From Ephemerocybe angulata (Eukaryota; Basidiomycota; Agaricomycetes; Agaricales; Psathyrellaceae), in NCBI GenBank assembly GCA_013368325.1, contig JAACJK010000219.1, forward strand, positions 186,001 to 250,000: a stretch of DNA of 64,000 bases, read 5' to 3'. Positions 26,856 through 64,000 of the stretch are shown here, piece by piece (the stretch's first letter is position 1; each line of letters opens with the position of its first letter). Below the pieces are notes generated by a model. That model was not told where the DNA came from, made no database searches, and was given only the letters and a program-made list of their open reading frames with translations. The position numbers and the translations under genes are program-made.

Positions 26856-29200
26856 CTAGGCCGCGCGCAGAAGTACTTTCGGTCTGAGAATGACTATTTC
26901 CTTCTCCCCCTTTGCATGCTTCGCCACGTATGCGACTCCCAAACCAAGTGTGCAAACCACAATTCGACCCTTCGTTGCCTTCCCGTCATCATCGTCCTCC
27001 ATCAGCTCGGGGTTATACGGTGTGTTTCTTTGGATGGAGAAAGGTCGAATATCGGCCGTTACGACCTCCAGGATTATTGTGGACTTGATCTTCAGCGCAT
27101 CCGCAGCGATTTCCATGACTTTCTCTTGGATCTTGGTGGCGACATTGGAGGCGTCAGGAGCGTCTTCTCTCCAACCCACGATGCTCATCAACTCGAGGAT
27201 TTTGGTCGTCATGAAGGAATGGTCAATATTGTTTGTCTTCAACTCCTTGAAAGTGATTGCCATCCAGTTCTTGGCTATGGCTGTTTCGTCTGCACGGTGC
27301 ACCATCAGTCAGCTTGGATCTAGACAGGACTGTCAACGGCGAGACGACTCACTGGACCGAAGAACTCTCTGCCATAAAGATTTCAAAAACTCCTGGATAC
27401 CTTGGCTCTCCGAGGCAAAGCTACAGATCACCTCGACGCACCGTTCCACCAGCATGTTTTGGATCATGCGCTCCAACAAGACTATGTCCGGATCCCTGTC
27501 GTCAGTACATCCCTTTATCAATTCCCTGATCAAATCGGCACCCCAGTCCTTCTCCCACGTCCTGAGATTGGTTTCGCGCTTCTTCACACTCTCGGCCCTC
27601 TCCCGGTTCCGCTTCCCCCACTTCTTGGTCTCCTTGTCGATGAGCTTGTCCGCAGCCAAGAAGGCGAGTAAGGCGATTCTTTCGTTCAGATCTTCGACCA
27701 TTCTAGAGATCTCGACTGGGGTGGCCTTGTCTGCGGTCGTCATGAAAGCTTGTGCGATATCAAGCTCTTGGGTGCGAGTAGCCAGTAGCCTCTCCGATTC
27801 CTTCAACGCTTCCTGCGCCTCCGCTGCGGTCTTCTTAGATACCGCCGCCTCGATCTGCATTCTTCTGATCTCCTCCTTAACCAGTCCTTCCCCATCCCCC
27901 GAGGTTTGCGTACGCTTCTCCAGCTCCAACGCTCGCCGTTCCGTCCTTCCTAGCATCTCCCGAAGCCCCTTTGTGTCTTCATTCGCAACTTCCAAATCGC
28001 GTTTGAGTTGTTCGGCATACGCCTGTGCACTTCTGATCTCTCGCTGTGCCTTCTTCAAATCCTCCTCCTTTTGCATCGCGGCTTGCTCTTTCTCCGCCAC
28101 CTGCGCACGGCTGGCGGACAGAGCGCCCTGCAACCTCTCAATCTCGGCTTCTTTCTTCTGTAGTTCCGACCCGCCCTGGGGATCCGGTGCCTTCCCTTGT
28201 GCCCGGGCTATCACCTCCTTCGCCTTTCTCGTCTCGATTTCTTGGTCCCTGAGCCGTCGCTCCAGTGAGGACTTCTGTCCCTCCACCAGCACCAACTGCT
28301 TCCTCAACTCTTTCAACGTCTCTCGAGTGTTCCCTTCGAACTCAACGGCATCCACTAGCTCCTTCTGCGTTCTCCCAGCCTCGACCAACCCCTTCTGGAC
28401 CCTATTTCCATTCTCCCACTCGGACAGCAGCGCACGACAACCTGTTAACTCGTTCTTCAAACCATTGATCTGGTCGTCTTTCTTCATGATGAAAGAAACG
28501 ACGTGCTTCCTTCCCATCTCCCGCTCTCCTGCTTCCGTCCGGAGCATCTTCAGTTCCTCGTGTAAGCTGTTGCGTTCCTCGATGACCCGTTCGAGCGACT
28601 CCCTATATACGATCTCTTTCGCGTCTTCGATCGATGCGGCAGTTGCCACGGCGCCTACTCCAGCTTTCAATGCATTCGTGACATATCGAAACACGCTGAA
28701 CGCACTCCCTCCACCCTGGTTCGACTCTTCTGTGACTCTGTTAGAGCCTGTGCCGCGTATGGCTTGATTTCGAATTCAAGTTAGTCGAAGTCAAGAGCGG
28801 ACAAGAAACTTTGCGACTGACTGAGAGCGGATTTCTTCATGAGCCTTTCTATTTCGATCTCGGCCTCCTTTCCTACCGATGGAGCTGGAGCGGAGCGCAA
28901 GCCCTCAACCCGACTTTGGTTGGAATCAAGCCGAGGTAGCTGGGGGCGAGAAGATGGCGCCTTTGGCTCGGCTGTGACGACATCCTTGGATTTCGAGCCG
29001 TTCTTCTTCGTCGTGAGGCACTCCTGCATGTCCTTGCCAGCCGTCGACGGTGTTCGGGATGGGTTTATGAAGGGACTTCCATCAGGTTCGGAAGGGCCCT
29101 TGGCCTTCTGCAAGCGTTCTGAGCGCCTTGTTTCAATAGATCGACCCTCCGTTTTCGTAGCGTCTTTCGACCGGGTACTGGTTTGAGCGGGGGGCGGCAT
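26856..29200 (-). CDS. Coiled-coil protein with conserved C-terminal helical domain (coil a, partner of Hsp70-like B)
   Basis: Three exons (28822-29200, 27353-28747, 26856-27289) give 735 aa. Residues 1-130 are basic and probably disordered (MPPPAQTSTRSKDATKT...). Residues about 160-420 are a long heptad coil (ERVIEERNSLHEELKMLR, QKSSLERRLRDQEIETRKAK, ALELEKRTQ). The C-terminal domain found in every coil protein here follows: DIAQAFMTTADKATPVEISR, MVEDLNERIALLAFLAADKL, DPDIVLLERMIQNMLVERC, ETAIAKNWMAIT, GWREDAP and a last block VVCTLGLGVAYV...VILRPKVLL. The second intron falls just before ETAIAKNW as in all paralogues. The gene starts 342 bases after the stop of Hsp70-like B on the same strand. 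No membrane segment or catalytic motif seen; it looks like an oligomerising adaptor. The C-terminal domain recalls a mushroom-specific uncharacterised family with an AQAFL..AD motif. Confidence 0.88.
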
Positions 29201-29321
29201 CGAAGGGCAAATGTCGATGTGGTGTGAAGGAGGAAAGGGAACACGTTGCTTAGGCGTGGATTAGATGGTGTTATCGATGCTGCAGCGTCCAAGTATGGAC
29301 AGTATCTGGTTGCTTATGTTT

Positions 29322-29340
29322 GGGCGTTAAATAAGCGCCC
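29322..29340. promoter_or_regulatory. GGGCGCTTA element as an imperfect palindrome upstream of coil a
   Basis: GGGCGTTAAATAAGCGCCC: the exact 9-mer on the minus strand with a near-match facing it. It lies about 125 bases upstream of the coil a start. Role as a protein-binding site is inferred from recurrence. Confidence 0.5.
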
Positions 29341-29542
29341 ATCAATACCATTTCTTACAACCTAATCGTTCGGGCACGGGAGTCGCGGAGGATATTCAAG
29401 TAAGTGTCATGTCTATTCGGTACGATGAAACATAAAGAGAAAAGCGGGTAATAGACGGGTATCATACATAGCGGGATCCAGTCGCAGATATACAAAGAAT
29501 GCATACTATCTGGTATCGTGAGGTTCGTAACGGCGTGCGAGT

Positions 29543-32054
29543 TTAATCTGCCGCATGAGCGACCCTCGCTGGACCCCTAGAATTGGATCAGTAAAGTTTC
29601 GGCTACATATGGCAAAAGTGCATACCGTTTCTCAATTCCCTGTTGTTGGAAACATTTTAGGTAGTGGTTTAACGACAGAATGGGCGTAACTCACGTCTTC
29701 TTCCCAAGCAATCTGCGCCTGCAGCTCTGTGAGACCAAATAGCAGGATAATCTCAAACTCGAGGCGGTAATATGTGGATCCAGTCGCTCCAGACCGCAAC
29801 TCCTCGAGCTTCACAGCAGATGTATCAGCTTCGACTGTGCAGACGACGGGGAACATATCTGCAAGTGACCGTCTCAGTTAGTTCGCCTGTGGCACATTCA
29901 ATAGGGAGTGCTTTATTGACATACCTGGGTCGTCATCAAGCCACGAGACTTTCTCCAACTGCCCCGTGTACCCGAACACCTCTGCACTGATGCTCTTCAA
30001 CTCATTCTTGTCCGTCGAGCGCTGAATGAAAGGGCTCTTAAACTCTGTCGTCTCAGTAACCCGGGTATCCTACACGAAGAGCCGTCAGACATGGAGCTGA
30101 GCCAAAAGATGTGAAGTCTCGAGCTTGCCTTTGGAAGAATAACAGAGAAATAATTGGTCAAAATACGTTCACCATTGATGTTCTTCCTGGCGAGGTCTAC
30201 TCGGCTCCGGTGTGAAGAGTCGCTTGCGTCGTACGGAGTAGCACAGAAGGTGCCGTACGTTAGCCGCGAGACTCTGGTGGAGACGAAATGGTCAAGTGAG
30301 AACGAAACGGCTCCATTGGAAACCGCCTTATTGCTAAGAAGGGTCAAGTATAATAATGAATCTTGGCACACCCTTTACGACTGGAGAGCGTGCTTACACA
30401 TGTGAATCAGGCCGGGAGACAGATACCCCCCATGGCTGAACTTTCTTCTTTACTTGGTTGAAGAGCCAATGGCTGGCGGAAAAGCCTCCAACGAGGAACA
30501 CCGACTTAACGGGTTGCCGTCAACTTCAACTCATATTGTAGGTTAGATCGCTCGCACCTTGATTGGGAAATGGGATGCAAGCATTTCAAGCTTGATTGCC
30601 TCGACGATGCAATCCACTGAAGGTTGGAAGAACTGGGCGACATCGCGTCTATCGTGGTATTCAGTTACAGTTACTCACGAAGTACCGAATATGAGTTTGG
30701 ACGTACCCAGGTACCTGCAAGCGCCCACCGCGAATCTTCAAGGCTTCGTTCTTCTCACCACGCCCTGCAAACTGAATGGGCTGCACCTCATCTTCATCTT
30801 TGAACATATGTTTTGTCTGTCTGTCGAAGCGGGCCGTCAGGGTGTCGACATCGTCCACGTACTTACTTCCAGCGAGGAGGTCTGGAGTTTAATCGTCAGA
30901 GCGATGACATAGCTACGCGGCGGAAAGAAACGGAAACGGACTTCTAAAATGTCTTTCAGCCCTCATCGTCACATACGCAGCCCCTTGGAAATGGCCTGTC
31001 ATGGACGTAAGTTGAAGCGCTATTACAGACGCGGTATTAACCTACATTTCGGGATGGAGATCTCCTCGAAAGATCCATCTGGAAGTCGACGATAGGAGCT
31101 GAAGTCGATGGTTCCTCCGCCAGCGTCGACAATCATAGCTCCTGTTTCTTTCTGGTAACTTCGTCAGTCGCGAGTCGCTGAGACTTCCAAGGTTTGACTC
31201 ACACTATCCTCGTCTCCGATCGAGAGTCCATTTGCAAGGCAGAAGTGAAGGCTCGCCTCGCCTTCGGTAACGAATGAGATACGAGCGCGCCCTTCCTCCG
31301 TGTCCTCAATCAAACCTGCACGGACAGCAGAGCGACGCATATCCGCTTGCTGGTTTCCTCCCCAGCCATTCGGATGCGTGAAGACGTACGCTGCATCGTC
31401 TTTCAGAGTGGTCCAGAGACGATCCCCATTCGTTTCAGTCTCCGTGATATACTCCCTAGCGCATTGGTAGAGATATCGCATGTAGTCCCCAAATATCTGA
31501 CCGACGGCCTTGTTTGGGGGAAGAGGCGGCAAGGGGTCAGAGTTCCACATCTTGAGGACGCTTGTAGGTTTTGGGCGGAGGTGGAGCTTGAACCTATGGA
31601 CCACGGAAGTTATTAGATGGGTTACTAGGACGAATAAGGGCCATACCAGCGAGCCTGACTCCAGCCTTCTTCCTCGGCTTCCTCTTGCACATTCTCTTTC
31701 AGGGTCTCTGCGCCAATTGCGCGAGGCTTCCCATCTTTATCGTAGTAGACAACAGTCGGGATCTTAGAGTCGGCACCGGCTGCCTCTTGGAAGGGGAACC
31801 TAAGTTAAAGCTTGGGTAGTAGTTTTTGTTATTTCAGGGTCGTAAACGGTGCCCCGTACCTCGTAACGGGGAGAATGACAGGTTCTTTTCCGGGATCAAG
31901 GATGCTGTCACTTCGGTTAGATATGCGCCCGATGCACGACCAGGAGAGCCATTTCAAACCTGTATGATATCCCGCTGAATGTCGTCCCGATGTCGAAGGC
32001 AAGTAGCAGCCGGCGACTCCTGCCGCCGTATTTCTTTCGAGGAGGCAAGGGCAT
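29543..32054 (-). CDS. Hsp70-like ATPase, HSPA12 type (copy B)
   Basis: Fourteen exons give 592 aa: 31960-32054, 31860-31904, 31647-31799, 31203-31593, 31046-31151, 30942-30995, 30707-30881, 30558-30648, 30398-30504, 30129-30333, 29925-30069, 29695-29858, 29626-29639, 29543-29576. ATPase motifs: AFDIGTTFSGISYR (Asp21), THPNGWGGNQQ, VTEGEASLHFC, VDAGGGTIDFSSY (Asp237), and SVFLVGGFSASHW (from residue 371). The C-terminal 150 residues carry the shared NKAVSNGAVSFSLDHFV, SRLTYGTF and EIILLFGLTELQAQIAW blocks but no classical peptide-binding domain. The intron after ILPK starts with GC (30123-30128 read on the minus strand), a GC-AG intron. A 14-nt micro-exon encodes GIEKR. The protein ends RGPARVAHAAD, unlike the SxAKVVY ending of its relatives. 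It is the first gene of the B/a pair. Confidence 0.9.
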
Positions 32055-32228
32055 CAAAGGCGATGAAAGGGGGGAACACGGAGCAAGGGAGGCTGAAGGA
32101 GGATGAGATGTCGAGGATCGCGAGGCTAGTTCGTACTTAGCTCAAACATATGTTGGGAGAAAGCTGCGGCACCTGGAGGCCACGACCCGTATATCGATAA
32201 GAACGCAGACCATCCAATGTGGCAAGCC

Positions 32229-32240
32229 GGGCGCTTATTT
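32229..32240 (+). promoter_or_regulatory. GGGCGCTTA element upstream of Hsp70-like B
   Basis: GGGCGCTTATTT; exact copy of the recurring intergenic 9-mer. Function inferred only from recurrence. Confidence 0.45.
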
Positions 32241-33034: not shown

Positions 33035-33054
33035 ATGCGTATATATATACGCAT
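33035..33054. repeat. Perfect 20-bp palindrome
   Basis: ATGCGTATATATATACGCAT equals its own reverse complement. It lies between coil b and Hsp70-like B, outside any supported transcript. It may act as a protein-binding or cruciform site, or be an alternating TA expansion. Confidence 0.6.
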
Positions 33055-33257: not shown

Positions 33258-35618
33258 CTACTGGAGGAGCACCCTCGGCTTGAGGATCACCGTCGCCTCT
33301 CGATCTTGCACCCTGTATGTCGCCCCCATCCCAACTGTACATAGAACCCGTCGCCCGACCTTCCCAGCAGCAGGCTTTGTCTTCCCCGAACCATACTCGT
33401 CCTCGTCTTTCATGCAAGAGTGGTCGTAGGTGGATTCAGCTCGAATTAGGATGAGGCATATGTCTGCTGAACGTATGTCGTGGATTATCGCGAATTTTAT
33501 CTTCAGCGCCATTTCAACAATGTTCTGTATCTTTTCCTGTACGCTGGCCGCAATCTTCTGGGCAGTTGGGGCGTCCTCTCTCCAGCCACCAATATTCATG
33601 ATCTCACTGACTTTTCTCTCTAGGTATTGAGCTTCAACGGACTCTGATTCAAGGTGAGCGTGAGTGATCGAAAGCCAATTCTTGGCGATTGCCAGCCTGT
33701 CTGGTGCACAGGAAAAATAGCAGTGAGTTTTAGTCGATTGCAAATGTTTATCGCATTGCTCACTCGTCTGCAGTATCCGTGCCCACAAGGAGGCAAGGAA
33801 GTCCGCGACCTCCTTTCTCTCAGAGGTAAATCCGTGTACGAGCTCGACACAGCGCTCGACGACCGTGCTCTGTATCATGCATTCGAGGAGTGTTGTATCC
33901 GGGTCCCGCTCTGCAACACCACGGCGCATCGTATTGACAACCCTTTCACCCCATTTCTTCTCCCAGACTCGGCAGTCGCTTTGTCGTCGTCTCCTCGCAT
34001 CCTCGCTTTCTGGGTGTCGATTTGCCCAGTTCCTCGCTTCCTCGCCCAGCAATTTGTCCGACACGTGGAAGGCGAGAGCACCAATGTACTCGTTCAGGTC
34101 TTCAGCCATTCGGGTTACATCGACTGGAGAGAGCTGGTCACTTGTGGTCATGAATGCCTGGGCAACCCTGAGCTCCTCCGTCCGTGAAGCTAGGAGATTC
34201 TCCAGCTCCCTGAGCCGTCTTCTCGAAGTCGGGACTCCTCCTATAGTGCCACTTCTCTCTCCTCGCATCCTCTCAGCATCTGCTGCTGCCTCCCTCGCCT
34301 GTGCCAAATCGAACTCTGCCCTCTGAGCTTGTACTTGCGCACCATTGACCTCAGCAGCTTTTTGCAATAATCGCTCCTCCAGGTCGTGTGCCCGCGCACG
34401 CTCCACCATCACCATACCGCTTAAGCGATCGATATCGTCCTGTTTCTCCTGTAAAGCAGCGCGTTTAGTCCCCAGAGGTTCCGTTTCTTGTGTCCCTTCT
34501 CGATGTGACGTCGATCCGCCAATTTGAACGCGCTTCAGCTGCTCCTTTGCCATTGTTAACTCCGCTTCCTGACTCGCTAGGCGTTGCTTCAACTCCGCGT
34601 TCTGATTCGTCAGCCTCTGACGAGCTTTCTCGGACTCCTGTCTTCCCTCCTCATCCTCCTTACGCGCCCTCCGCATCTGCTCCTCAGACCTCCTCGCCCG
34701 TTTCTCCGACTCCCGGACTTGTGCCTCCAGTTGTTGCGATATCTTTTTCAAATCCTGTAGTTCTTTCTCTGCGAACGCAATCTTGGAAGTGTGCTCGGCA
34801 GAAACCACTCGGGCCCTGGCAGCTTCCCCTTGAGCTGTCTTAGCCTCACTTCTCCTTCTCCTCTCTAGGGTCTCCTTCTCCTTCTCCACCTTCCGGACCT
34901 TCTCCCTGTACATTGATATGTCGCGCTCGTGTTCAATTTTGAGGTCGTCGTACTTTCTTATCGCTTCGCCCGCCTCTTTTAACGAGTTACTAAGCTCCAT
35001 ACGCAATGTCTCCACTTTTTTCTTCCACCTTTTTGATCCGTCCTGCGCTTCCCTCAATTTCCCTTCTAGCATAGTGATATGCTCCTGCAGCCCAGCTGAC
35101 TCTGCTCTGATCTCCCCAAGTTCCACCCGAAGATTATCCACCTCATTCTCCTTTTCCCGAATGACTTCGAGGTACGAGTATTCGTCTTCTTTGCCCAACC
35201 CAGACATTACATTCTCCCTGTTCCAGCCTCCTCTCGATTCACCTGCAAACCTATCACGCTCGGTGTAGCCTGAGTCAACCGTAGCCTTCAAATGCTTGAT
35301 GTCGCTATCTCCCTGGCTACGTCCGTTGGCAAACGAGGGCGCCGGACCTCTGGACAATGAGCGAAAGTGACGCCGGGTCCTAGAAATAGGACCTTCATGC
35401 ACCGCCGACGCTGACGTTTGTTTGGCGACCTGACCGGCTTGACCTTCAAAACGACAAATATTAGTAGAAAATCAATGGATAATGCATTTCCATGGACATT
35501 TAAACTCACTTATCGCTGAAAACTTGCCTGATGTCCAACCTAGTGCTGAGGAAGGTCTTTTTGTGTTCCCTGCTACTGGAAGCGTGTAGCTGGGCTGGTG
35601 TTGTCTGCCTCTATCCAT
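33258..35618 (-). CDS. Coiled-coil protein with conserved C-terminal helical domain (coil b)
   Basis: Three exons (35510-35618, 33764-35443, 33258-33700) give 743 aa starting MDRGRQHQPSYTLPVAGNTK. A Ser/Arg-rich N-terminus leads into a heptad coil of roughly 300 residues (KENEVDNLRVELGEIRAES, KIAFAEKELQDLKKISQQLE, RRSEEQMRRARKEDEEGR). The shared C-terminal domain follows: RVAQAFMTTSDQLSPVDVTR, MAEDLNEYIGALAFHVSDKL, DPDTTLLECMIQSTVVERC, RLAIAKNWLSIT, GGWREDAPTAQ, and VLCTVGMGATYR...VILKPRVLL. The 63-nt second intron (33701-33763) is a multiple of three and stop-free, so retention would insert 21 residues. b is the only coil gene without an Hsp70-like gene directly upstream on its strand; D, also minus, lies beyond the inverted C/c pair. 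Confidence 0.88.
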
Positions 35619-36117: not shown

Positions 36118-38701
36118 ATGTCCCTACCGCAGCGCAAGAAATACAGTGGCCGAACCAGACGACTTTTGCTTGCCTTTGACATTGGAACAACCTTCAGTGG
36201 GATATCCTACAGGTACTCTCTCTCCCGCATAGCATCCCGAACAAGACTTAGATACATACTTGGACAGTATTTTGGACCCTGGAAACGTCCCTGAGATTCT
36301 TCCTGTTACACGGTAAGGCGATTATTCCTCCTCTGTCCGCAAGAGCCACATTTTGACGACAGAGTAAAACGTTAGATTTCCATCGCAAGAGCAAATCGGC
36401 GGGGATTCCAAGATACCTACCGTTATCTACTACAACTCTGCTGGAAATCCTTGCGCCATTGGGGCAGAGACGCTCAAGGAGGGGATCGAGGAAGACGCTG
36501 AACAAAACGGCTGGACTCAAGCTAAATGGTTGGTCATATTACCTTCATTTTTGGGGGTGAAACATCACTCAGAGTACCATGGCTTTGTAGGTTTAAGCTA
36601 CACCTTCGCCCAAGGCCATCTGGACAACTAAATTCCCCGAATACTGACCCTGGTATTCCACCGTTACCGCCTCACAAGACCGTGGTTCATGTCTTCAAGG
36701 ATTACATGCATTACCTCCATCGATGCGCGCGAGAATACATTTCAGAAACACACGGCGACCGACTATGGTCCGCCGTCAAAGACGACATCATGTACGTCTT
36801 GACGCATCCCAATGGCTGGGGCGGTCCTCAGCAAACCCAGATGCGGGCAGCAGCAACACTCGCAGGGTTTGTGGCGAACGGAGAAGAAGCACAGTCTCGC
36901 ATCACTTTTGTAACAGAAGGAGAGGCCAGCCTCCACTTCTGTCTCACTAATGGACTCTCGCTCAGCGCTGATAAGAAGGTGCGTGAGCCTTTGGCCCTGT
37001 GATGAGTTCGCCCCTGAATCCAACCCGATTATGATTCTAGTCAGGCGTTATGATTGTGGACGCTGGAGGGGGAACTATTGATGTTACCGCGTACCGTAAG
37101 CGTAAAAACAGTTCTTTCGAGGAAATCGCAATTCCTGAATGTAAGTCACTTCACTTTATCATCATAGACTCCGTTCCAGGTCCCCGAAGCTTAATGGGTC
37201 GTGTAAATAGGCCATTTCCAGGGCGCGGCTTATGTCACGATGCGGGCCAAGGAATACTTCACGGGTATGTCTTCGCAACTATAAAATGAACGAGTTTGAC
37301 CAAGTCATATCTTAGATTTGCTCTCAAATACACGATTCTCTCAAGACATTGAGACCTTGGAAAGGCGCTTCGATAGAAATACGAAGCACGTTTTTCGAAA
37401 GGACAGCGAACCTCACCACATCCAATTTGCCTCCCACCGTGAACGTGATTCGGCTCTTAATATCCGAGGAGGACGACTAACTCTATCGGGGTGCGTATGA
37501 AGTACCTACCGGCCACATTTGCATCGTTTCTGACTCAATCCTGATTCTTCGTTTCGTGTCTAGAGTGGTTGTCGCCAAAATGTTTGAGCCCTCGATCACT
37601 TGTATTGTCGATGCGGTACGAGCTCAGAAGGCCGCATCCCATTTTTCAATAAAGGTGTGTCCCATACGTCAGAGTTTAACATATACAGCAGCCTCTGATC
37701 ACCTATTAAAGTCCCTCTTCCTAGTAGGGGGCTTTTCAGCTAGTACTTGGCTCTTTGACAGGGTTCGAGAGAAGGTAGAAGCGTTAGGAATAACTGTCTC
37801 GCGCCCAGATACCTTCGTGTGCGTAACCCCTCTGGAATTCATCTGCTCCGTATCCTCTAATGAATCATGCCATTTACAGCAACAAGGCAGTGTCGAATGG
37901 TGCCGTATCGTTTGTCCTAGACCACGTAGTGACTACAAGAGTCTCCCGATTAACATATGGGCTGTATTGCGATACGCCTTTCCGCAGCGAGGACCCTGAG
38001 CATCAAAAGAGGGCAAATCGCACCTTTCGTGACCAGTTCGATGGGAAGCGAATGTTGAAAGGAAAGTATCAGATCATCTTGCCCAAGGTGCGGACATTCC
38101 TTCTTGGCAGTTTTGGAGCGAATCACTGATAACCAGGGTATTATCAAGAACATTAGAATTCGCGAGACCGTTGAGTTCAAGGAGGCCTTCACACAGAAAA
38201 GCACTGACAAGAAGTCCCTCAAAACGATAAGCGCAGCAATACTTGTGTACACCGGGAAGAAATCGAACCCAACCTGGGCCAGCGATGATCCCGGTAAGCC
38301 ACACTAGAATACGTCGACACCTTGGGCAAGGTAGCCACCCGAGCAATCGCTCACATCTCTTTCAGGTAGTTACTCAATCGCATGCAGAATTGAAGCTGAT
38401 ACTTCCGCTGTCACACTGGTTAAACGCAAATCCACCGTAACCTCGCAAACGTATTATCGCATGGATTATGAAGTTGTCCTTCTCTTTGGATTGACCGAAC
38501 TTGTAGCCCAGATTGCCTGGAGCGACGATTCCGTACGTACACTACTACTATCTTTCGCGAGAACCCTTTCTGACTAGAATCGTAACATAGGGAAACGAAA
38601 CAAGGTATGTGTCTAAAACTCTGCGGGAGACTTGACCATTGGCGAAACAGTTTCTGAACTGGGAAAATAGAAGCCCTGCAAAGGTGGTCTACGCAACATA
38701 G
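36118..38701 (+). CDS. Hsp70-like ATPase, HSPA12 type (copy C)
   Basis: Fourteen exons give 594 aa: 36118-36212, 36268-36312, 36376-36528, 36591-36978, 37041-37140, 37211-37264, 37316-37490, 37564-37654, 37712-37818, 37880-38087, 38137-38293, 38366-38532, 38591-38604, 38671-38701. Motifs: LAFDIGTTFSGISYR, THPNGWGGPQQ, VTEGEASLHFC, VDAGGGTIDVTAY, SLFLVGGFSASTW. The block FDRNTKHVFRKDSEPHHIQF is nearly shared with copy G, and the introduction FPSQEQIGGDSKIPTVIYY with G as well, so C and G are sister copies. The C-terminal part is NKAVSNGAVSFVLDH, RLTYGLYC, EVVLLFGLTELVAQIAW; the 14-nt micro-exon encodes GNETR; the end is SPAKVVYAT. Coil c begins 295 bases downstream. Orientation is opposite to B and D. 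Confidence 0.92.
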
Positions 38702-38941: not shown

Positions 38942-38996
38942 TGAGATAAGACTTAGCCCCTTCCCAACGTCGTACTTCTCGACATTATCATCAAAT

Positions 38997-51612: not shown

Positions 51613-53369
51613 ATGATGCCGACGACTACCCGGGCATGTTATCGCCAACAATGCGCCGAGGACAGCCAGCTCACGTTGCTGGAGACAGTATCTTCGAGCC
51701 GTAGTGCATCAGCCGAAAGGGATATTGTTTCTGGACATCAACCTAGCACCGAATATCAGTACACCAGCGATTCCGACCATGGTCGTGGTAGCGGTATGTA
51801 TGGTTCGGCTCTCAGCCATAAGTCTGTCCCTCCGATGACCGTGGTGCCCCAGATGAATCCATGGTATCTATAACCGACGATGAGAACACCGAAGAGGGGT
51901 CAGATGGTATGTAAAGGCTAAGCGCCTCACGCGCGCCGCCGTATGCTCACCGGTCCGCGACAGATCCTCTCGAGCTTCAAGTCAGTGCCCAGGCTGGAAC
52001 GCACCAACGGCCAATATCCATTGCTTCAGCCTCCTCCTCAGAAAACCACGAGGAGACTGATACTGACGACATGATGGTTGAAGGACCAGAGTCTCTGGCA
52101 GAGGAAGACTCGGAGGAGTCCATTGGCGGCCTGTCGGACGCCGAGCAAACGATTGCCGAACTGCAAGACGCGCTGCGGGAAAGAGATTCCACGATTCAAC
52201 GGCTCACCGATATCGTGAATGGAGACGGCAGAATGCTCAGGGAAACGCGGTTGGCGGACCGCTGTGTCCGCCTGGAACGCCAGCTGAAAGCGATGGAGAA
52301 TGACAGCAAAGAAGCGGAGGCGGTTATGACGAGGCTGGAAAGGGAGTGTGCGTTGTCTAAGTCCAAGCTGAAGGCAAATGCAGCTCGCCTGGAAGTTTGT
52401 GAGGCGGAGTTGCGTGCCACCCAGCGGTTCGGGACCACGGCGGATGCAGTTGATGTTGCGGAGGTAGCTCGCATGGTTGACAGACTCAACGTCAGCATTG
52501 AAACTCTTGCTTCGGCGCTAGGGAACGAAATCGTCACTAGCAGAGCGTTGGAGCCAAAGAAGAGGGGGAGGCCACCCCGCTATGTAAAGAATGCGGACTT
52601 GCAAGTCATCCACAGGTGGGGCGAAGACCTTGTTCTCTGCATGAAGGCAGGAATCACGTCCAAAAACCCAACAATCTTCGTGGCGCTGGTGCGGAATGCG
52701 CTTTCGGAGCTCTGTGGAGCAATTATCCAGGCGTTTTCTCTCCGAGACGGCGTAATGGATGACAAGCTGATGGAACTATGGGCCGTGGTTAATGAAAATT
52801 GTAAGCATATTTATCACCCAGAGGTCGCCTGCGGCATTGGTTATTTCTCCAACATTCTAACGCACTTTGCCATAGGTGAACACGCCGTCGCGAAAAGATG
52901 GCGCGTCATAACGGGCTCGCAGTTGGGTCCCGACGATGACGATGTTGCCACCCTGACTTTGTCAATTAATGAACGTCTCGAGGACCTGATGGTTGCCGCA
53001 GGATGGAGGCATGCTAGTAAACGCTCAAAGGAACTTCCCTCGTTTGTGCCAGTCGATCTCGCTGATATTATAGCAAGAGCGCTGGAAATTAGAAGAACGG
53101 CACTCGAAGACGTTCTTTCGGCGGATTTGGAGGCCTTGATGTGTGAAATGGGTACTCCATTTGCTCATGCAGAGATGCAGGACGCGTTGACCGTCGGGCA
53201 GAGAACCGTCGACGACCCTGGACTGGACGGTCAGCCGATATTGTGCTCTACTGGAATAGGAATTAGATGTACTACTAGGAGGGGAGGGAAGCGGATGACG
53301 AAGGTAGCTCTTAAGTCAAGGGTTCTCTTGCCTTCGGCTTTGAAGCTAATGTGCGTTAGCGACACTTGA
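51613..53369 (+). CDS. Coiled-coil protein with conserved C-terminal helical domain (coil d, partner of Hsp70-like E)
   Basis: Four exons (51613-51793, 51853-51906, 51964-52800, 52876-53369) give 521 aa. Two ATGs stand together at 51613 and 51616; the second (MPTTTRA) aligns with coil e and may be the true start. Acidic N-terminus (DDENTEEGSDDPLE, EDSEESIGGLSD), then a coil of about 100 residues (EQTIAELQDALRERDSTIQR, LERQLKAMENDSKEAEAVM). The C-terminal domain is diverged but complete: ATQRFGTTADAVDVAEVAR, MVDRLNVSIETLASALGNEI, EHAVAKRWRVIT, AAGWRHASKR, ILCSTGIGIRCTT and VALKSRVLLPSA. Loss of AQAF and the RW for NW change separate d and e from a-c. The third intron (75 nt) is in-frame and stop-free. 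Confidence 0.87.
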
Positions 53370-54825: not shown

Positions 54826-57416
54826 ATGCCTTCTCGACCGCGCCCGAAGTTCAAAGGCGACAGAAAGCGCCTCGTGCTCTCTTTCGACATTGGGACTACA
54901 TTCAGTGGTATCTCTTACAGGTGCGTTGAGCATCATTTACCCCCACATGCGTGATGATGCTCACCATCATTGATTAAGCATCCTCACTCCTGGGAGGGTC
55001 CCAGAGATTCGACCAGTCACCCGGTGTGTATATAGAGATAATCTCTCTTGGAGCATGACTCAATGTATTCCTGTAGGTACCCGCACCAAGAAGCGGTCGG
55101 AGGCGATGCCAAGGTACCAACCGTGATTTACTACGATCCAGCAAACGGAAAGCCACTCGCAATTGGCGCGGAGACCTTGAAGTCCAATGTCATCATGGCC
55201 GCTGGGCGAAAAGGCTGGCACAAGGCAGAGTGGTACTGTCCTAGCTTCCTTATGATCCATGACCTTGACCTGATGTTATTAATTACAACCCCCAGGTTTA
55301 AGCTCCACCTACGATCGCTAGACATGGTCCAACCCGGTGAAACGGTCCCTCCACTCCCACCCGGGAAACCAGTTGGCGCCATTCTAGCCGATTTTATGAA
55401 GTATCTTTACCAGTGCGCAGAGGAGTACATTGAAGAAAGCCACCGATGCGTCAATTTGAGGGCATTGAGAAGCACGACTGTCTTCATCCTGACGCATCCT
55501 AACGGCTGGGGAGGTGCTCAACAAACTACCATGCGGAAGTCTGCGATAGACGCTGGCCTCGTCCCGGACGCAAATGCCGCGCGCGACCGCATCTTGTTTG
55601 CGACGGAAGGCGAATGTAGTCTTCATTTCTGTCTCCAGAATGGACTTGAGATAGGCCCTAGGGTATGCACACCTTCGCTTCTAGAACTGCTCGTTGAGGT
55701 AAACACAAGTCTTTCAGGATAAAAGTGGGCTCTTGATCGTGGATGCGGGCGGTGGAACTGTGGATGTGACTGGTTATCGAAAGGATCGAGGTTACTTCGA
55801 AGAAATTACTGTCCCAGAATGTGAGTGGCACATATTTCTATTGTTCTGATAGTAACGCCGTTATACACAGGCCATTTTCAAGGCTCAGTTTATGTGACCA
55901 TGCGTGCCCGGGCGGACTTCGAGAGTCAGTTCCTTTCTCTTAATCCGTTATTCCGCTTAACTTATGTTTCCCTCACAGAAAAGCTGGGCCTCCACCCTCG
56001 TTACGCTTCTGGAATCCCACTACTCGTACAAGAGTTTGATAAAGGGGCGAAACACTCCTTCAAAGATGAGGACGAAACCGTGTATATTCGGCTTGGTGGT
56101 CCATATGAAACTGAGCCCGCTCTGGGAATTGAGACAGGGCAACTTGCCGTAACGGGGTGAGCGTGCTATTAGAAGCTGTCCCGCAAGGGACTGTACAGCT
56201 GATCGCCGTCCCCCTAGCGCCACCATCGCGAAGTTCTTCAAGCCTTCTGTGGACTGCATCGTTGCGGCAATCGAGAACCAGAAAGAGCAATCCATTGACA
56301 CCTTTCCCAATTGGGTGAGCTTTCACCAGTTTTGATCAACTATCCCATATGCATGATGCTCAGTTCAATTTCTTCTTTTGGCGCAGTCTGTCTTCTTGGT
56401 TGGCGGATTCTCTGCAAGTTCATGGCTATTCAACCAAGTTAGAGACCAAGTCCCGTTGAATACCAGGGTTACACGCCCAGATGGACATGTGTGAGTTTCT
56501 ACAATTTGAATGCCCAGTCGACGCACAGGAGTAACCTCTGACCCCCGTGCAGTAATAAGGCCGTTGCCAGTGGTGGTGTATCCTTCTATCTCGATAACGT
56601 GGTTCATTCGAGGGTGTCTCGTCATACATATGGCGTCGACGCATTCGTCGATTACAACCCGCGGAAAATGTCCCATTTCCAGCGACGCAAAAAAATCATA
56701 GACGACCCTGTCAGTGGAAAGGACATTCTAACGGGATGTTTTGACCCAATCTTAATGAAGGTTCGATTCTCTATTATAATACTGCCACCCTCCGCGACGT
56801 CTAGCCTAACAGAATCTGTAGAACACAAGAGTGAAGGACACTGAAGAATTTCGACAAACGTACATACGGATCAGCAATAACTCCAATGAACTTCACAACA
56901 TTGAGGCTGAAATTCTTTGTTACCGCGGGAAGGCCAGCAATACGATGTGGATAGATTCTGAACCAGGTGAGTATCCTCAAGTTGGATCAGCGAGTGACAG
57001 AATGATGTAGGCCACTTGCTAGATATGTATCCTGTTCTCTGTAGAGTGAGGGCTGATACGTCGATGGTTCGGCAAAGCAAGAAACGCGACGTAGATGGGA
57101 AGCGATATTATGAAATCGAGTTTTCAGTCGTCCTACTGTTCGGATTGACCGAACTGAAGGCCCAGATTGTTTACACTGATTCTGCAACTGTACGTCCTTC
57201 TTATTCCGGATTTCTCTTCCACCAAGTCTACACTCACATTTCTTTTTATTCTTGGATTCTGTGTGTGTGTATCCTAGAAGAAAGAGCGGAGGTACGTCCT
57301 ACATCGTTTCTTTCGAGCGACGATGTCTGATGCAGATCTCCATCCCAAATTACAGAGGGGAAGCACAGGTTCTGTTCCCAGACCCCGGAAATAGTTCCCT
57401 AATAGTTTCTCGATGA
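54826..57416 (+). CDS. Hsp70-like ATPase, HSPA12 type (copy F)
   Basis: Fourteen exons give 597 aa: 54826-54920, 54979-55023, 55077-55232, 55296-55662, 55718-55820, 55871-55924, 55979-56156, 56218-56314, 56387-56490, 56553-56760, 56822-56966, 57023-57189, 57278-57291, 57356-57416. Starts MPSRPRPKFKGDRKRL, close to copy E. Motifs: LSFDIGTTFSGISYR, THPNGWGGAQQ, ATEGECSLHFC, VDAGGGTVDVTGY, SVFLVGGFSASSW. Shares KLGLHPRYASGIPLLVQEFD with the E block. The usual C-terminal blocks are present (NKAVASGGVSFYLDN, VVLLFGLTELKAQIVY); the micro-exon encodes KKERR. The final exon runs 17 codons further than in C or G (ending SSLIVSR) because the expected stop region has changed. Coil e follows 396 bases downstream. 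Confidence 0.91.
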
Positions 57417-57812
57417 TAGCTGGAATGGCGGACTTGAAGTGCTCGATTTGGGTGACTCGGTCTCTCCGGAGAATGGGGGACAACTGAAAGCGCCGTAGAT
57501 CTAAGATTCTTGTCTCCCGAATAGTTAAAACCTAGAAATCCTGTACGCCGATGAGGAGCCATGCAATTTCTTCCAATCTGTGTACATGACTGAGGGCCCA
57601 ACCGTAATTGACGCGGGCAGCGCCCGAGAAGGAGGGCTATCCCACAGAAGCCTCGGAGTTGGAGGGGAGAGACTGACTCGTTAACGTTGGAACTCCGCAG
57701 TTGAACAGTGACTTCAATCCTTCATCGCCCCGAGCTACTTCCCTCAACAAATTCCTCATTGCCCGCCGTACTCAATACACGCGGCATCAGTCCTCCTAGC
57801 GATTCATTCGCG
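57417..57812. other. Gap between Hsp70-like F and coil e
   Basis: 396 bases, no gene. An open frame from 57708 starts only at GTG and is not used. Confidence 0.4.
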
Positions 57813-59543
57813 ATGCCGACAACTACTAGGGCGGCGTGGCGCATCCAGCAATATATGACAGACGACGAGCCAACGCTTGGGACTGTAGCCACCCCAGCCA
57901 AAAGGCGCCCTAACTGTCGCACTAGTTCGAAGGGCCATGGTGCATTGGCATCCAAGAAAGAAATTGAAAATCAGAAAAGCAGCGACTTTGAAATCGGTCG
58001 TATTGGTCGTATTGGTGCGCATGATTATCTCGGGGAACGTCTGCGTGCTGACCTCGCCTCAGATAATCTGCCGATGGGGCTTCCTCCCAGCGACGACAAC
58101 ATGGACGTGGTTTCCGACGGTGAGCATGTCCGCTATCTCACAAGGTGCGGGCTATCCACTTACTTTCCCCAGATCCACTCGAAGGGTATGGGATGCCAGA
58201 AAATCGAGGTTCGACCATTTCTATGTCTTCCTCGGACATAGTACACGACAACATCTGCCCCGATCATATAATGGAAGATCCAGTACAACTTTCGGAGAAC
58301 GAGGACCTATCGGACCAAGTTGTCATTCGAACCCTTACCAAGCCGCGGAACGAATTGCGACTGAAGGCCAAAGCTCTCCAACGGCCAAGCGACATCGTCC
58401 GTGGTGATGGCAGAGTCCTTCAAGTTGAGCACGAGAAGCTATTGGTGTATTGCCGTCGCCTCGAAGGGGATCTGAAAAGTTCTAGGGACGATAACCGACA
58501 GTCGAAGGCGGTGATAACGACGTTGAGAAGGGAGTGCGAGGCGGCGAAATCGAAGTTGAAAGTCACCAAACTTCGTCTCGCAGAGTGCGAGGAGAACTTG
58601 GATAGCGCGCAGCAATTCTTGAACACTGCTGATGCGGTCGAGATTGCCGAGGTTACGCGCATGGTCGATAGGCTGAATGACGCCATCGAAGGTCTTGCTT
58701 CCACACTGGGGAACGAGATCATCCGGGCAGCCAGGGCCAGGGCCAGGAGCAAGCCGCCGCGTTATGCCACGGAGGCTCGCACAGTAGTCACGCAGATGTG
58801 GGGGAAGAAGATTGTGGATTGCATGACGCTGGGGATGACTATGAGAAATTCGACGATATTTGCAGCCCTGGCACAAAGTGTGCTTTCCAATATTTGTCTA
58901 ACTATTGTCCGGGCTTTCTGTCTTGAAGACGACGCAATGAACGAGAAGGTAGCCAGCCTGTGGGTTGGGATCAATGAGAACTGTGAGTACAATACCTTCG
59001 AGGGAGTCTGTTAGGCTTACTTAACGACGCATGCTCTTAGGTGACCTCGGAGTTGCAAAGAGGTGGCGATCTCTCACCAATGCTCAGCTTCAGCCTCGCG
59101 GTGATACTATTGCAGCAATCACTGCATCAGCCACCCAGAGTCTCTCAGACCTGATGGTTACAGCAGGATGGAGGCAGAGGACTCCGGACAAGCTCCCCCC
59201 ATATGTCAAGGGAAGGCTTGACGATATCTTCGCAGACGCTCTGGAAATCAGGAGGACAGTGATCGACGACGTTCTCTCGGCCGATCTGGAGGTCATTAAG
59301 TGCGAGAATTCCACTCCATTCCTGCATAAAGAGATGCGGGATGCCTTAAAGGTGGAGCAGGGAGACGGTAAGGATGCAAGCTTACTAGATGGGGAGCCTA
59401 TTGTATGCTGCACGGGGATCGGGATGAGGTACACCAGTTGGAAGAAGGGGAAACGTGTTTCAAAAGTTCTGCTGAAGTCCAAAGTTCTCATGCCTTCAGC
59501 ATTGAGGCCGAAGATCAAGATAAAGGCTTCTTGGGTATCATAA
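57813..59543 (+). CDS. Coiled-coil protein with conserved C-terminal helical domain (coil e, partner of Hsp70-like F)
   Basis: Three exons (57813-58119, 58173-58982, 59041-59543) give 539 aa starting MPTTTRAAWRIQQYMTDDEP. N-terminal half polar and probably disordered, joined to the coil through the same SDDPLE-type junction used by d. Coil: KPRNELRLKAKALQ, HEKLLVYCRRLEGDLKSSRD. C-terminal domain: SAQQFLNTADAVEIAEVTR, MVDRLNDAIEGLASTLGNEI, AQSVLSNICLTIVRAF, CDLGVAKRWRSLT, TAGWRQRTPDK, IVCCTGIGMRYTS and VLLKSKVLMPSA. It is clearly the sister of d, mirroring the E/F relationship, so the pair duplicated as a unit. The last intron (58 nt) is not a multiple of three, unlike in b, c and d. Confidence 0.87.
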
Positions 59544-60390: not shown

Positions 60391-62887
60391 ATGGCTTTGC
60401 CAAACCGTAAGGTTTACACCGGCAACTCGCGCAGACTTCTACTTGCTTTCGATATAGGAACCACATTCAGTGGGATATCGTACAGGTCAGTGACTTACTT
60501 TATGCACGAGTGGGTCGTGTACTAACGCGACTTTCGACTTTCAGCATCCTCGACCCTGGCACCGTGCCCGAAATCAGGCCCGTCACCCGGTACGCACCTA
60601 TCATAAGAGTTTTGCGTGAACTACCAACATTCTCTATAGGTACCCTTCTCAGGAACAGGTTGGAGGTGATTCGAAGATCCCGACAGTCATATACTACGAT
60701 GCTATGGGCAAGTCCTGCGCCATCGGCGCCGAAACCCTGAAGGAAGGGATCGAAACGGATGCCGAGGAAAATGGGTGGAACATCGCTCGATGGTATGTCG
60801 GCATGAGTTTCTGTATCTCCTCGACCTCTAGACTAAGCACACGTATAGGTTCAAGCTTCATTTGCGACCCAAGAAGCCCGCTGCCGCTGGGAGACCGAAT
60901 CCGAACGAACCAGAACTGCCTCCTTTGCCGCCCAACAAGACCGTCGAGCAGGTCCTGACCGACTTCATGAGGTATCTCCGCGAATGCGCCAAGATATACA
61001 TCGCCGAGACTCACGGGGATAGACTCTGGGCGTCCCTCGAAGGCGATATCATGTACGTGCTCACTCACCCCAACGGTTGGGAAGGCCAGCAGCAGGCGCA
61101 GATGCGTCGTGCGGCTGTATGTGCGGGCCTGACTCCCAATGGCGAGGAAGCCAATGAACGCATTACCTTCGTCACCGAGGGCGAGGCAAGTCTTCACTTT
61201 TGCATCTCGAATGGCCTCGCTGTGAGCCAAACCGACGTGAGTCTTGTATTTACTTTTGATCTCAATGAGTTCTGACTGAAACGGTGTTATCCAGACTGGT
61301 GTGCTAATCGTCGATGCGGGAGGCGGAACTATCGACATAACCGCGTACCGAAAGTTATCCCAACAAACTTTCGAAGAAATCTCCATCCCAAGCTGTATGT
61401 ATTCCGGTCGCTTTGGCCTTGTAGTTGACTGACCGTGCTCCGGAATTCTTCAGGTCATTTCCAGGGAGGGGCCTATGTTACGATGCGCGCTGAAAAGCAC
61501 TTCAAAAGTGAGTGCGACAAGGATCTCGTCGTGGCGTGGGGCTGACGAATTTGTTAGACCTTCTCGCCGGCAGTCGATTTTTCAATGATGTCGATGTCCT
61601 CACCACCCGCTTCGACAGAAACACAAAGCATGTGTTTCGAAGGGAAGATGAGCCCCATCATATCCAATTCGCCTCCCATCGTGAGCGGGACGCAACCTTG
61701 AACATTCGTGGGGGCCGCCTGACCTTGGCTGGGTATGTTGATTGCTCGAGCGATACCTGTCCTACGACTCATCTACTGCACAGTCGCGATGTGGCTTCCT
61801 TCTTCCAGCCATCTATCGACGCCATCGTCCAAGCTATCAAGGACCAGCGAGCGGCTGCTCACTTTCCGATCAAGGTTTGTCGTTTCGGACGTATCACTCT
61901 GGCCGGCGCTGATGACCGTTATGATACAGACTGTGTTCCTCGTTGGCGGATTCTCGGCGAGTAACTGGCTCTGTGATAAGGTTCGGCGGGCGATCGAACC
62001 CCTTGGGATCGCGGTGTCGCGCCCAGATAGCCATGTGTAAGTCATTATTTATATGCGCCCTGAATCAATATTGAGCATGACGATTCGATTCTAGGAACAA
62101 GGCTGTTTCAAACGGCGCTGTCTCGTTCTATCTGGACAGTGCTGTCAGTTCCAGAGTCTCTCGCTTCACGTATGGCGTGGAATGTCGGAATCCCTATGAT
62201 CCTTGCAACCCTCAGCACCGTGCACGAGCACACTTGGTTGAAGCATGCCCAATCAGAGGAGAGCAAATGCTTTCTCGCTTTTTCAGAACCATACTTCCGA
62301 AGGTAACTTCGTTCTTCGGTGAGGCGATGATTTACTAACTCCTCTTCGATACCACAGAACGAACGAGTGAGCGAAATGAAGGAATTTCGACGCGAGATCT
62401 GGTATAGCCGTGAAACGGCTACTCCTGTCGGTGCGATGAGTTACGAGATCCTTTCTTACAGTGGAACATCAGTGGTTCCCACCTTTACCGATGACGAGCC
62501 TTGTAAGTCGTCGGTGATTTAGTATCTCGTTGGTCGGTCAATGGTCTTACTCTTCGGAAGCCAACTTTCCAACGACTTGCGTCGTTCACGCAGATCTGTC
62601 TGTAGTTCCTCCTGAACTTCGTTATTCCTCCACAGGAAAGGCCTATTATATGACCGCATTCGAAGTCGTCCTATTATTTGGCTTGACGGAGCTTAAGGCC
62701 CAGGTGGTGTACAAGGATCGCTACGTATGTTCTCATATTTGCTCCCTCTTCACCAATAATCCTAATGGGCGTAATTTACCTTTCACACAGGGTACCGAGA
62801 GGAGGTGAGAGGATCTCGTTTGGCTCTTCCGGCGATGACTGACTTCCTTTTAGGAGTGCCGCGAAGGTTGTGTACGAAGGGCCCTGA
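60391..62887 (+). CDS. Hsp70-like ATPase, HSPA12 type (copy G)
   Basis: Fourteen exons give 590 aa: 60391-60485, 60545-60589, 60640-60792, 60849-61236, 61295-61394, 61454-61507, 61558-61732, 61784-61874, 61930-62036, 62095-62302, 62358-62502, 62561-62724, 62791-62804, 62854-62887. Motifs: LAFDIGTTFSGISYR, THPNGWEGQQQ, VTEGEASLHFC, VDAGGGTIDITAY, TVFLVGGFSASNW. The exon around 61558-61732 (FDRNTKHVFRREDEPHHIQF, HRERDATLNIRGGRLTLAG) is the closest match in the window to copy C. Usual C-terminal blocks; micro-exon GTERR; end SAAKVVYEGP. Coil f starts 475 bases downstream. Exon lengths and phases equal those of C almost throughout, supporting both models. Confidence 0.92.
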
Positions 62888-63362
62888 ATGATGAATTGGG
62901 CCCCCGTTTCCCGAATCAGATTTCTTGACGTTTTCGAAGGGCGCTTTCCCCTAGTTTGTAGTTTATCGACGTTCCCCGAATTGAACTTTACGCGTTTTTT
63001 GTCGCTTTAATCCATGAACTATCTACTGAACGATGCTAACGGTTCAAGTTTGGGCCCCAGAGGCCGCTGTCTACAAGGGATAAATCGATAACGGGGTGCG
63101 ACCAAACCGCCGTCGAAGCTGCCAGTGTCAATTTAACCTCTACACCCGCTGCCGACAGAAACTCAACGAGGATCGAATGCTTCTATATTCCTCCGTTGAT
63201 CTGCTTTGGTAGCCCAGGTGCAGGACCGAATTCGACGACGGCCTTTCTTCTCGTCTTCCCTGTTCTTCCCACCCTTACGCTGGAGACTAGCTGTCCACTC
63301 CCTCCCCAGATCTTATTCTTCGTCGTGCTCCTGCCGCCTGCGCATTCAAGTCGTAGTATCCC
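62888..63362. other. Gap between Hsp70-like G and coil f
   Basis: 475 bases, no gene. GGGCGCTTT near 62938 is a one-base variant of the recurring 9-mer. C/T-rich tracts around 63240-63340 lie just before the f start, as is common for fungal promoters. Confidence 0.4.
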
Positions 63363-64000
63363 ATGCACATCGACATGAAAGAAATACGAGATGGATTACC
63401 CCCTGTCTCGACAACAAACAATACCCATTCGCGATCCATCGATGCTAGACCAGCGACCACAGCAGACCCTTCGAAAGAGGACTGCTCTGACGCAGGTTCA
63501 TTCGAGGAAGGCGATACTTTGAAGCTGGGCTCCACCCCTGCCCGTGGACGTGAGGACCACGCGTCTCGACATAGGCGTACCTCTTGTGCGTTCTTCCCTC
63601 TACCTATTTTCCCTCGTTCTCACAATTATTGAATGGTAGCCACCGGATTCCTCTCAAGTGTCCGGGGGAAAGTCGAAGGCGCCTTGACGTTCGGTAGCGT
63701 CGCATGGAAGGATCCTGCTGTAGGAATGGGACAGCCCTTCCGCCAGCGCAACGAGGAGCCTGAGGCTAGTCAACACCAAGAACTGCATCATCTGCGCCAG
63801 AAATTGCAGGAGATGGCGGCGGGGATGGCGTCTCAGCGAGCATACAGCGAGAAGACCATCCAGAATTTGCAAGAGCAAGTGCAATGCATGCATACCACGA
63901 TATCCAGGGCCAATGTGGAGGTCAACGACCTGAAACGGCAGCTGGAGATGACTTGGAGGAATCTCGGGGAGACGAAGAAGCACTTGGACGACAGAGCAGA
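63363..64000 (+). CDS. Coiled-coil protein, 5' part only (coil f, partner of Hsp70-like G; runs off the window)
   Basis: Two exons visible (63363-63585, 63640 to the window end), the second incomplete. It starts MHIDMKEIRDGLPPVSTTNN. A polar N-terminus leads to GFLSSVRGKVEGALTFGSVA, which corresponds to the VFRYVTNALKAGVGAVATAA segment of coil a at the same exon boundary. Then the heptad coil begins (HQELHHLRQKLQEMAAGMA, KTIQNLQEQVQCMHTT, EVNDLKRQLEMTWRNLGETK). The conserved C-terminal domain is expected beyond 64000. Identity rests on position directly after an Hsp70-like gene, exon phase, and the coil. Confidence 0.75.

What the first reader, a model, noticed from the sequence alone, without database searches (positions are those of the whole stretch)
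26856..64000. Repeated two-gene module: HSPA12-type Hsp70-like ATPase followed by a coiled-coil protein
Seven intact Hsp70-like genes and six coiled-coil genes lie in this window. In five cases (B/a, C/c, E/d, F/e, G/f) the ATPase gene is followed on the same strand, 295-475 bases later, by a coil gene, whichever strand the pair is on. All visible coil genes share one C-terminal domain, and sister ATPases (E,F) sit beside sister coils (d,e). Order and pairing survive inversion and duplication, as for toxin-antitoxin, chaperone-client or sensor-effector partners. Established: HSPA12-like proteins keep the Hsp70 ATPase but lack the classical substrate domain, and their clients are largely unknown. 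Inference: the coil protein is the dedicated partner or client, and the array is a birth-and-death family such as those used in recognition, defence or development. I know of no description of this pair.
Basis: partly seen in the sequence, partly recalled or inferred. Interest (0 to 1): 0.92.

Follow-up and report, generated by a model that had tools for sequence, protein, structure and literature searches.

The report
Paired Hsp70-like and coil gene array
A mushroom carries a large cluster of chaperone-like genes, about half of them followed by a coiled-coil gene that has duplicated and diverged in step with its neighbour, which points to a little-known working pair whose job is still unknown.

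Summary
The genome is Ephemerocybe angulata. The core array (C115:189-344 kb) has 18 Hsp70-like ATPases and 19 coil genes; in 10 cases the ATPase is followed on the same strand by a coil within 0.8 kb. Position alone is modest evidence (P 0.014-0.022; 8 ATPases and 9 coils unpaired). Stronger: ATPase and downstream-coil divergences correlate (r 0.65, P 0.0004), those of upstream coils do not (r -0.13, n = 7), and gene trees share clades. Elsewhere, a Sphagnurus model joins an ATPase tail to a coil, and Laccaria and Candolleomyces accession numbers place both families together. Correction: the ATPase is predicted as an Hsp70 NBD plus beta substrate domain without the helical lid. The coil protein is predicted as a disordered N-terminus, a 107-residue helix and a helical/beta domain without a significant PDB match. 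Best reading: a co-inherited two-gene unit, probably an ATPase with a dedicated partner. Binding and function are untested; neutral co-duplication remains a serious rival.

The parts
3248..5528 (-). ATPase A, Hsp70-like, no coil downstream
   Evidence: motifs; model; tree; unpaired
29632..32054 (-). ATPase B, Hsp70-like, paired with coil a
   Evidence: motifs; model; pair
26856..29200 (-). coil a: N-terminal region plus shared C-terminal domain; 432 bp downstream of B
   Evidence: models; second-strain protein P0002 (N-term 93.0%, CTD 98.6% identical)
33258..35207 (-). coil b, unpaired: divergent from C (911 bp), and 1.2 kb upstream of B
   Evidence: model; gaps; second-strain protein P0001 (N-term 92.0%, CTD 96.9%)
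36118..38635 (+). ATPase C, paired with coil c
   Evidence: motifs; model (3' end at 38701)
38997..40674 (+). coil c, 362 bp downstream of C
   Evidence: models; CTD alignment
40983..43255 (-). ATPase D (= public protein D9611_003520, P0109), unpaired, convergent with c
   Evidence: model; P0109 match; structure model
48552..51208 (+). ATPase E, paired with coil d; groups with F and T
   Evidence: motifs; model; tree
51861..53369 (+). coil d, 653 bp downstream of E; groups with e and t
   Evidence: models; tree
54826..57676 (+). ATPase F, paired with coil e; sister of T (C115:167.7-170.3 kb)
   Evidence: motifs; model; tree; 3' end uncertain
57813..59543 (+). coil e, 137 bp downstream of F by my model; sister of t (C115:155.3-156.5 kb)
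   Evidence: models; tree
60391..62887 (+). ATPase G, paired with coil f
   Evidence: motifs; models
63363..64000 (+). coil f, 476 bp downstream of G; runs off the window to C115:250942
   Evidence: model on joined contig sequence

Best explanation
The repeated thing is a two-gene unit: a lid-less Hsp70-type ATPase (nucleotide-binding domain plus SBD-beta, ending about 30 residues after the last SBD-beta motif) followed by a helical protein made of a fast-evolving disordered N-terminus, a ~100-residue coiled-coil stalk and a conserved ~290-residue C-terminal domain (CTD). A founder unit like S/s, with relatives in other Agaricales, was multiplied by birth and death into a 155-kb array in E. 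angulata. Most likely (inferred, not shown) the coil protein is the dedicated partner of its own ATPase: its CTD engages the SBD-beta face, doing in trans what a lid or bound client does in an ordinary Hsp70; the stalk oligomerises it; the variable N-terminus gives each pair its specificity; ATP binding and hydrolysis switch the complex. Shown: adjacency, co-duplication, correlated divergence, purifying selection on average. Predicted: the folds. Inferred: binding, switching, recognition.
For: 10 ATPase->coil pairs in the core array, gaps 137-789 bp, 4 of 10 on the minus strand. Correlated divergence r 0.65 for the whole ATPase; SBD-beta v CTD r 0.72, and 0.60 (P 0.0003) after removing NBD divergence, against 0.30 (P 0.07) for NBD after removing SBD-beta (0.32, P 0.02, with T/t added). 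Upstream coil neighbours: r -0.13, n = 7. Matching clades. T/t, the sisters of F/e, kept strand order although now 11 kb apart. Sphagnurus P0016: residues 6-60 match the end of the ATPase profile (positions 533-584; 37.9 bits for the first 75 residues alone, best of 200 shuffles 4.6), followed by a coil CTD. Laccaria bicolor ATPases LACBIDRAFT_298114 and 298123 and coils 298115 and 298121 share contig length 1105879; Candolleomyces EST38_g170 (ATPase) and g174 (coil) share 336591; these are 3 of 3 listed ATPases from the two named non-Ephemerocybe species that occur in both lists. dN/dS 0.15-0.35 for eight CTD comparisons, 0.14-0.26 for four of five ATPase comparisons, one saturated. Folds.
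Against: No interaction was measured or modelled as a complex. Half the core genes are unpaired (8 of 18, 9 of 19); the 8 ATPase loci and 3 coil loci found on other contigs lack the other family nearby. ATPases are found far more widely than coils: 1500 hits against 14 and 2, though the search misses fast-evolving relatives. 0 of the 120 listed ATPase proteins carry a coil CTD (the length limit only partly allows it). Positional P values are modest. In Laccaria the two coils are 87% identical over their whole length but the two ATPases only 60%, so the pairs there do not mirror each other. Parts of the two E. angulata trees are unresolved, and f groups weakly with a-c while G does not group with B/C. 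For the five ATPases with both an upstream and a downstream coil, the downstream correlation alone is not significant (r 0.45, P 0.18; upstream r -0.37), and with one pair per sister group P is 0.054. The SBD-beta/NBD contrast is not significant by bootstrap (P 0.06-0.12), and SBD-beta exons are also nearest the coil. Linkage in Laccaria and Candolleomyces rests on accession numbers and contig lengths.
Confidence: 0.42

Rival explanations
1. Neutral co-duplication: the two genes happened to be neighbours in the founder segment and have been copied together by unequal crossing-over. Adjacency and matching trees then reflect shared history only; the proteins need not touch.
For: All ten pairs lie in one array on one contig; coil and ATPase divergence both also follow genomic position (r 0.62 and 0.50); half the genes are unpaired and look maintained. 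A stronger SBD-beta/CTD correlation could follow from recombination tracts, since SBD-beta exons lie next to the coil gene. The Laccaria pairs do not mirror each other.
Against: Correlation remains after removing position (partial r 0.49, P 0.003); upstream coils (gaps 278-2736 bp) show none; both families are also linked in Laccaria, Candolleomyces and Sphagnurus; the ATPase->coil gap is shorter than the coil->ATPase gap (median 371 v 848 bp, one-sided P 0.011; 7 of 8 coil->ATPase gaps, the 21-kb one left out).
Confidence: 0.35
2. The coil protein is a general co-chaperone (nucleotide-exchange-factor- or J-protein-like) acting on the NBD, rather than a partner of SBD-beta.
Confidence: 0.1
3. 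The array is a recognition or conflict repertoire (fungal allorecognition, antiviral or antibacterial), with the ATPase as switch and the coil N-terminus as sensor or effector. This is about role and does not exclude the partner model.
For: Large array of diverged copies; coil N-termini evolve faster than CTDs between strains (93.0 v 98.6%, 92.0 v 96.9%) and between paralogues; Hsp70-like domains occur with coiled-coil proteins in bacterial CoCoNuT systems (PMC11090510, passages).
Against: Pairwise N-terminal dN/dS is 0.18-0.53, no sign of positive selection on average; coils a and b and ATPase S are conserved in the second E. angulata strain; no effector domain above a Pfam cut-off in the coils scanned. 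Population data not available.
Confidence: 0.15
4. Fast-evolving developmental or stress chaperones with no fixed partner; pairing is a leftover.
For: The 8 ATPase loci found on other contigs have no coil hit nearby.
Against: Shared clades and the upstream/downstream contrast.
Confidence: 0.15

Closest known systems
HSPA12A/HSPA12B (vertebrate atypical Hsp70s)
   Same: Diverged Hsp70 NBD and no sequence similarity to the canonical SBD (described for HSPA12 in PMC2266713, passages; here the profile matches PDB Hsp70s only in the NBD). Several of the 120 listed relatives are labelled 'Heat shock 70 kDa protein 12A' or '12B'.
   Different: Tandem array; about half followed by a coil gene; C-terminal domain predicted as SBD-beta. 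No direct alignment to human HSPA12A was made.
Canonical Hsp70 / DnaK / BiP
   Different: No helical lid; 16% identity; below the Pfam PF00012 cut-off (P0109 10.3 v 20.6 bits).
DnaK-GrpE-DnaJ gene clusters (recalled)
   Same: Hsp70 gene next to a helical partner gene.
   Different: No significant fold match to GrpE, no J-domain HPD motif, and diversified in a repeated array.
CoCoNuT type III systems of bacteria (PMC11090510, passages only)
   Same: Hsp70-like domain together with coiled-coil proteins in one locus; proposed conflict function.
   Different: Bacterial; McrB GTPase/McrC-based; no sequence relation tested.
Fungal NLR repertoires (PMC4986451, listing and abstract start only)
   Same: Diverse fungal family linked to nonself recognition.
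   Different: Different ATPase fold (recalled); no NLR domain hit in the proteins scanned here.

Membership tests
Hsp70 superfamily | Phosphate-1, phosphate-2 and adenosine motifs | tested here: met
   Pattern scan of 20 ATPases misses phosphate-1 in E and the adenosine motif in U; both are conservative variants outside my pattern, seen in the translations.
Hsp70 superfamily | Hsp70/actin-type NBD fold | tested here: met
Hsp70 superfamily | Pfam PF00012 gathering score | tested here: not met
   P0109 10.3, P0057 11.6, P0021 15.5 bits against 20.6, P0067 and model B no hit. A few listed relatives (e.g. P0018, P0032, P0042, P0133) bear a precomputed PF00012 label.
Canonical Hsp70 | Beta substrate-binding domain | tested here: met
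   Predicted only: residues 426-594 mostly strands, whole-chain superposition on NBD+SBD-beta. No sequence match.
Canonical Hsp70 | Alpha-helical lid after SBD-beta | tested here: not met
   D model ends in strands; 86 of the 92 listed proteins under 680 aa matched my FGLTEL pattern and end a median 29 (max 51) residues after it. Two Hypsizygus proteins of 753 and 787 aa have long charged tails instead.
HSPA12 | Sequence membership with vertebrate HSPA12A/B | not tested
   Only database labels seen.
J-domain protein (coil) | HPD motif | tested here: not met
   0 of 38 coil sequences (22 models, 16 database proteins).
GrpE-type exchange factor (coil) | GrpE fold | tested here: inconclusive
Toxin-antitoxin or allorecognition pair | Toxicity alone, neutralised by partner / incompatibility | not testable with these tools
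   Needs experiments.

The most novel reading that the evidence does not exclude
A split, diversifying Hsp70: mushrooms run an array of lid-less NBD-SBD-beta ATPases, each with a separately encoded helical partner that closes on its own SBD-beta, forming a repertoire of pair-specific ATP-driven recognition machines in which the partner's variable N-terminus is sensor or effector.
Probability: 0.14. Interest if true: 0.88.

Novelty: new variant of a known kind. Interest (0 to 1): 0.6.

Why it matters
A repeated ATPase-partner unit with co-varying divergence gives natural matched and mismatched pairs for testing what such ATPases bind and how a lid-less Hsp70 works. It would also give a two-component meaning to a coil family whose CTD the Pfam and PDB searches made here did not place.

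Tried and rejected
Coil as J-protein: rejected, HPD in 0 of 38. Coil as GrpE relative: not supported; absence of a match is no proof, the CTD was not searched alone. Genuine ATPase-coil fusion: none of 120 listed ATPase relatives has a coil CTD; P0016 carries only the ATPase tail and looks like a gene-calling join, so I use it as evidence of adjacency. Likewise 25 of the 120 listed proteins are over 900 aa and hold two ATPase units; 19 of these 25 lack at least the first 30 profile positions of the second unit, as expected if callers join tandem genes. Pfam hits on coils are generic coiled-coil matches below cut-off. NCBIfam gave no family above its cut-off. Viral contigs: no relative of the ATPase. 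Precomputed Pfam labels PF28422 (P0001) and PF27033 (many ATPases) gave no hit in my scans with the local copy, so I could not place them. Literature: ten searches; five of them aimed at fungi or mushrooms with Hsp70/HSPA12-type words, one at this species (none found). I saw capped listings and abstract starts, and passages of PMC2266713 and PMC11090510; PMC12696064 was opened for one term, not found. Nothing listed describes this pair or such an array; the library is partial, so this is weak evidence.

Weak points of my own: gene models are homology-guided predictions without transcripts; some keep introns. The coil->ATPase gaps were entered by hand (7 of 8). Several correlations were run; P values are not corrected. 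Own-genome searches score only the best candidates, so locus counts are lower bounds.
Full report
WHAT AND WHERE. The window is contig C115:186001-250000 of a 58.7-Mb genome. A public protein (P0003, D9611_003552, Ephemerocybe angulata) comes from a contig of exactly the same length as C115, 1,796,990, so the organism is E. angulata, an agaric mushroom; a second strain (DFP72DRAFT) is also in the databases.

CHECK OF THE OBSERVATION. Seven ATPases (A-G) and six coil genes (a-f) are in the window. I extended the reading with 96 kb to the right plus flanking pieces. In C115:189-344 kb there are 18 ATPases and 19 coils; 10 ATPases are followed on the same strand by a coil as next family gene: B/a, C/c, E/d, F/e, G/f, I/g, J/h, K/i, L/l, S/s, gaps 137-789 bp. 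Eight ATPases (A, D, H, M, N, O, P, Q) and nine coils (b, j, k, m, n, o, p, q, r) are not so paired. If the tags D9611_003520 (D) and D9611_003552 (s) are numbered consecutively (assumed), 31 annotated genes lie between them, and I model 28 members of the two families there: the array would hold little else.

IS IT CHANCE? Shuffling family labels gives P = 0.022, shuffling strands 0.014, both 0.003. Of 18 ATPase/coil neighbours under 1 kb apart, 10 are ATPase->coil, 4 coil->ATPase, 3 divergent, 1 convergent. So position alone is suggestive. The evolutionary test is stronger: over the 10 pairs the distance matrices of ATPases and downstream coils correlate (r 0.645, P 0.0005), and still do after removing genomic position (r 0.49, P 0.003) or leaving out S/s (r 0.52, P 0.003). 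Coils immediately upstream of an ATPase on the same strand (7 pairs, gaps 278-2736 bp) give r -0.13, P 0.73; 11 upstream, divergent and convergent neighbours together r 0.22, P 0.13. Against: for the five ATPases that have both kinds of neighbour in these sets the downstream correlation alone is r 0.45, P 0.18 (upstream r -0.37), and with one pair per sister group (7 pairs) r 0.61, P 0.054. ML trees show {E,(F,T)} against {d,(e,t)}, {B,C} against {c,(a,b)}, {I,(H,J)} against {g,h} (the last at 89/86 for the coils), and in both trees a split, 100/100, between a clade with Laccaria and Candolleomyces sequences, S or s, and a clade of array members (midpoint root, for drawing). Five inner branches are unresolved in each tree; f joins a-c weakly (94/92, long branch) while G does not join B/C. 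T and t, the sisters of F and e, lie 11 kb apart on the same strand at C115:155-170 kb.

OTHER PLACES AND SPECIES. Four coil queries over the own genome (best candidates only) find coils on C115 and at three other loci (C125:2233k, C120:1125k, C220:58k); none of the three has an ATPase of this family in the 8.5-9.4 kb read around it, nor has the coil group at C115:369-377 kb within the 10 kb read. A PF00012 hit lies 27 kb from the C220 coil, not followed up. Two ATPase queries find eight loci on other contigs, none near a coil hit. In other species: Sphagnurus paluster P0016 begins with the ATPase tail and goes on into a coil CTD. In Laccaria bicolor two coils (LACBIDRAFT_298115, 298121) and two ATPases (298114, 298123) share one contig length and close numbers; a third coil (300147) is on another contig with no ATPase in the list. 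In Candolleomyces aberdarensis ATPase EST38_g170 and coil g174 share a contig length. That numbers follow gene order is assumed. The Laccaria coils 298115 and 298121 are 87% identical but the ATPases 60%, so those pairs do not mirror each other. Coil homologues found: 2 proteins for the derived type and 14 for the s type, agarics where named; ATPase homologues: 1500, of which 120 were listed.

SELECTION. Pairwise dN/dS is 0.15-0.35 for eight CTD comparisons, 0.18-0.53 for their N-termini, 0.14-0.26 for four ATPase comparisons (a fifth is saturated; several dS values exceed 1). On average these genes are maintained; single positively selected sites are not excluded.

HOW IT MAY WORK. SBD-beta is more diverged than the NBD among paired ATPases (p-distance 0.62 v 0.46) and follows CTD divergence more closely (r 0.72 v 0.55); after removing NBD divergence SBD-beta/CTD stays at r 0.60 (P 0.0003), the converse is 0.30 (P 0.07; with T/t added 0.32, P 0.02). 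The direct bootstrap contrast is not significant (P 0.06-0.12). This hints that the partners meet through SBD-beta and CTD, as a lid or client would; recombination tracts covering the adjacent exons are a neutral alternative. I commit to the dedicated-partner model at 0.42, with neutral co-duplication at 0.35; the other rivals partly overlap with these.

NOVELTY. Known kind (Hsp70-like ATPase; tandem array), new variant: lid-less, partner-linked, diversified. Ten paper searches listed no description (calls in Tried and rejected); the library is partial.

Noticed in passing
window 20941-26103 (+): Open 1720-aa frame of a chromodomain LTR retrotransposon (reverse transcriptase, RNase H, integrase zinc finger, Chromo, Tf2-type SH3) between ATPase A and coil a.
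   Followed up: partly
one search list, e.g. P0018, P0019, P0021: 25 of 120 listed ATPase relatives are over 900 aa with two ATPase units; in 19 of 25 the second lacks the first 30 or more profile positions, which hold phosphate-1, probably gene-caller joins of tandem genes in several Agaricomycetes.
   Followed up: partly
C115:331394-331573 (+), L042: 60-residue fragment 93% identical to the C-terminus of coil s, perhaps a duplication remnant.
   Followed up: no
C125:2232815-2234249 (-): Coil z, closest to q (CTD dN/dS 0.32), on another contig without an ATPase in the 9.4 kb read.
   Followed up: partly
L052 (C120:1121001-1130000): Lone coil gene between frames that look like an F-box protein and a large GTPase (my reading of the translations).
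   Followed up: no
window 13339-15627 (-) and 316-2202 (-): DUF2828/DUF7788 protein and an F-box-like protein.
   Followed up: no
window 45261-46258 (+): Possible RNase_T-type exonuclease gene between D and E (16.1 bits, below the Pfam cut-off).
   Followed up: no
Laccaria bicolor LACBIDRAFT_298114-298123: Coils there are recent copies (87% identical) beside much older ATPase copies (60%): recent duplication or gene conversion of the coil alone.
   Followed up: no
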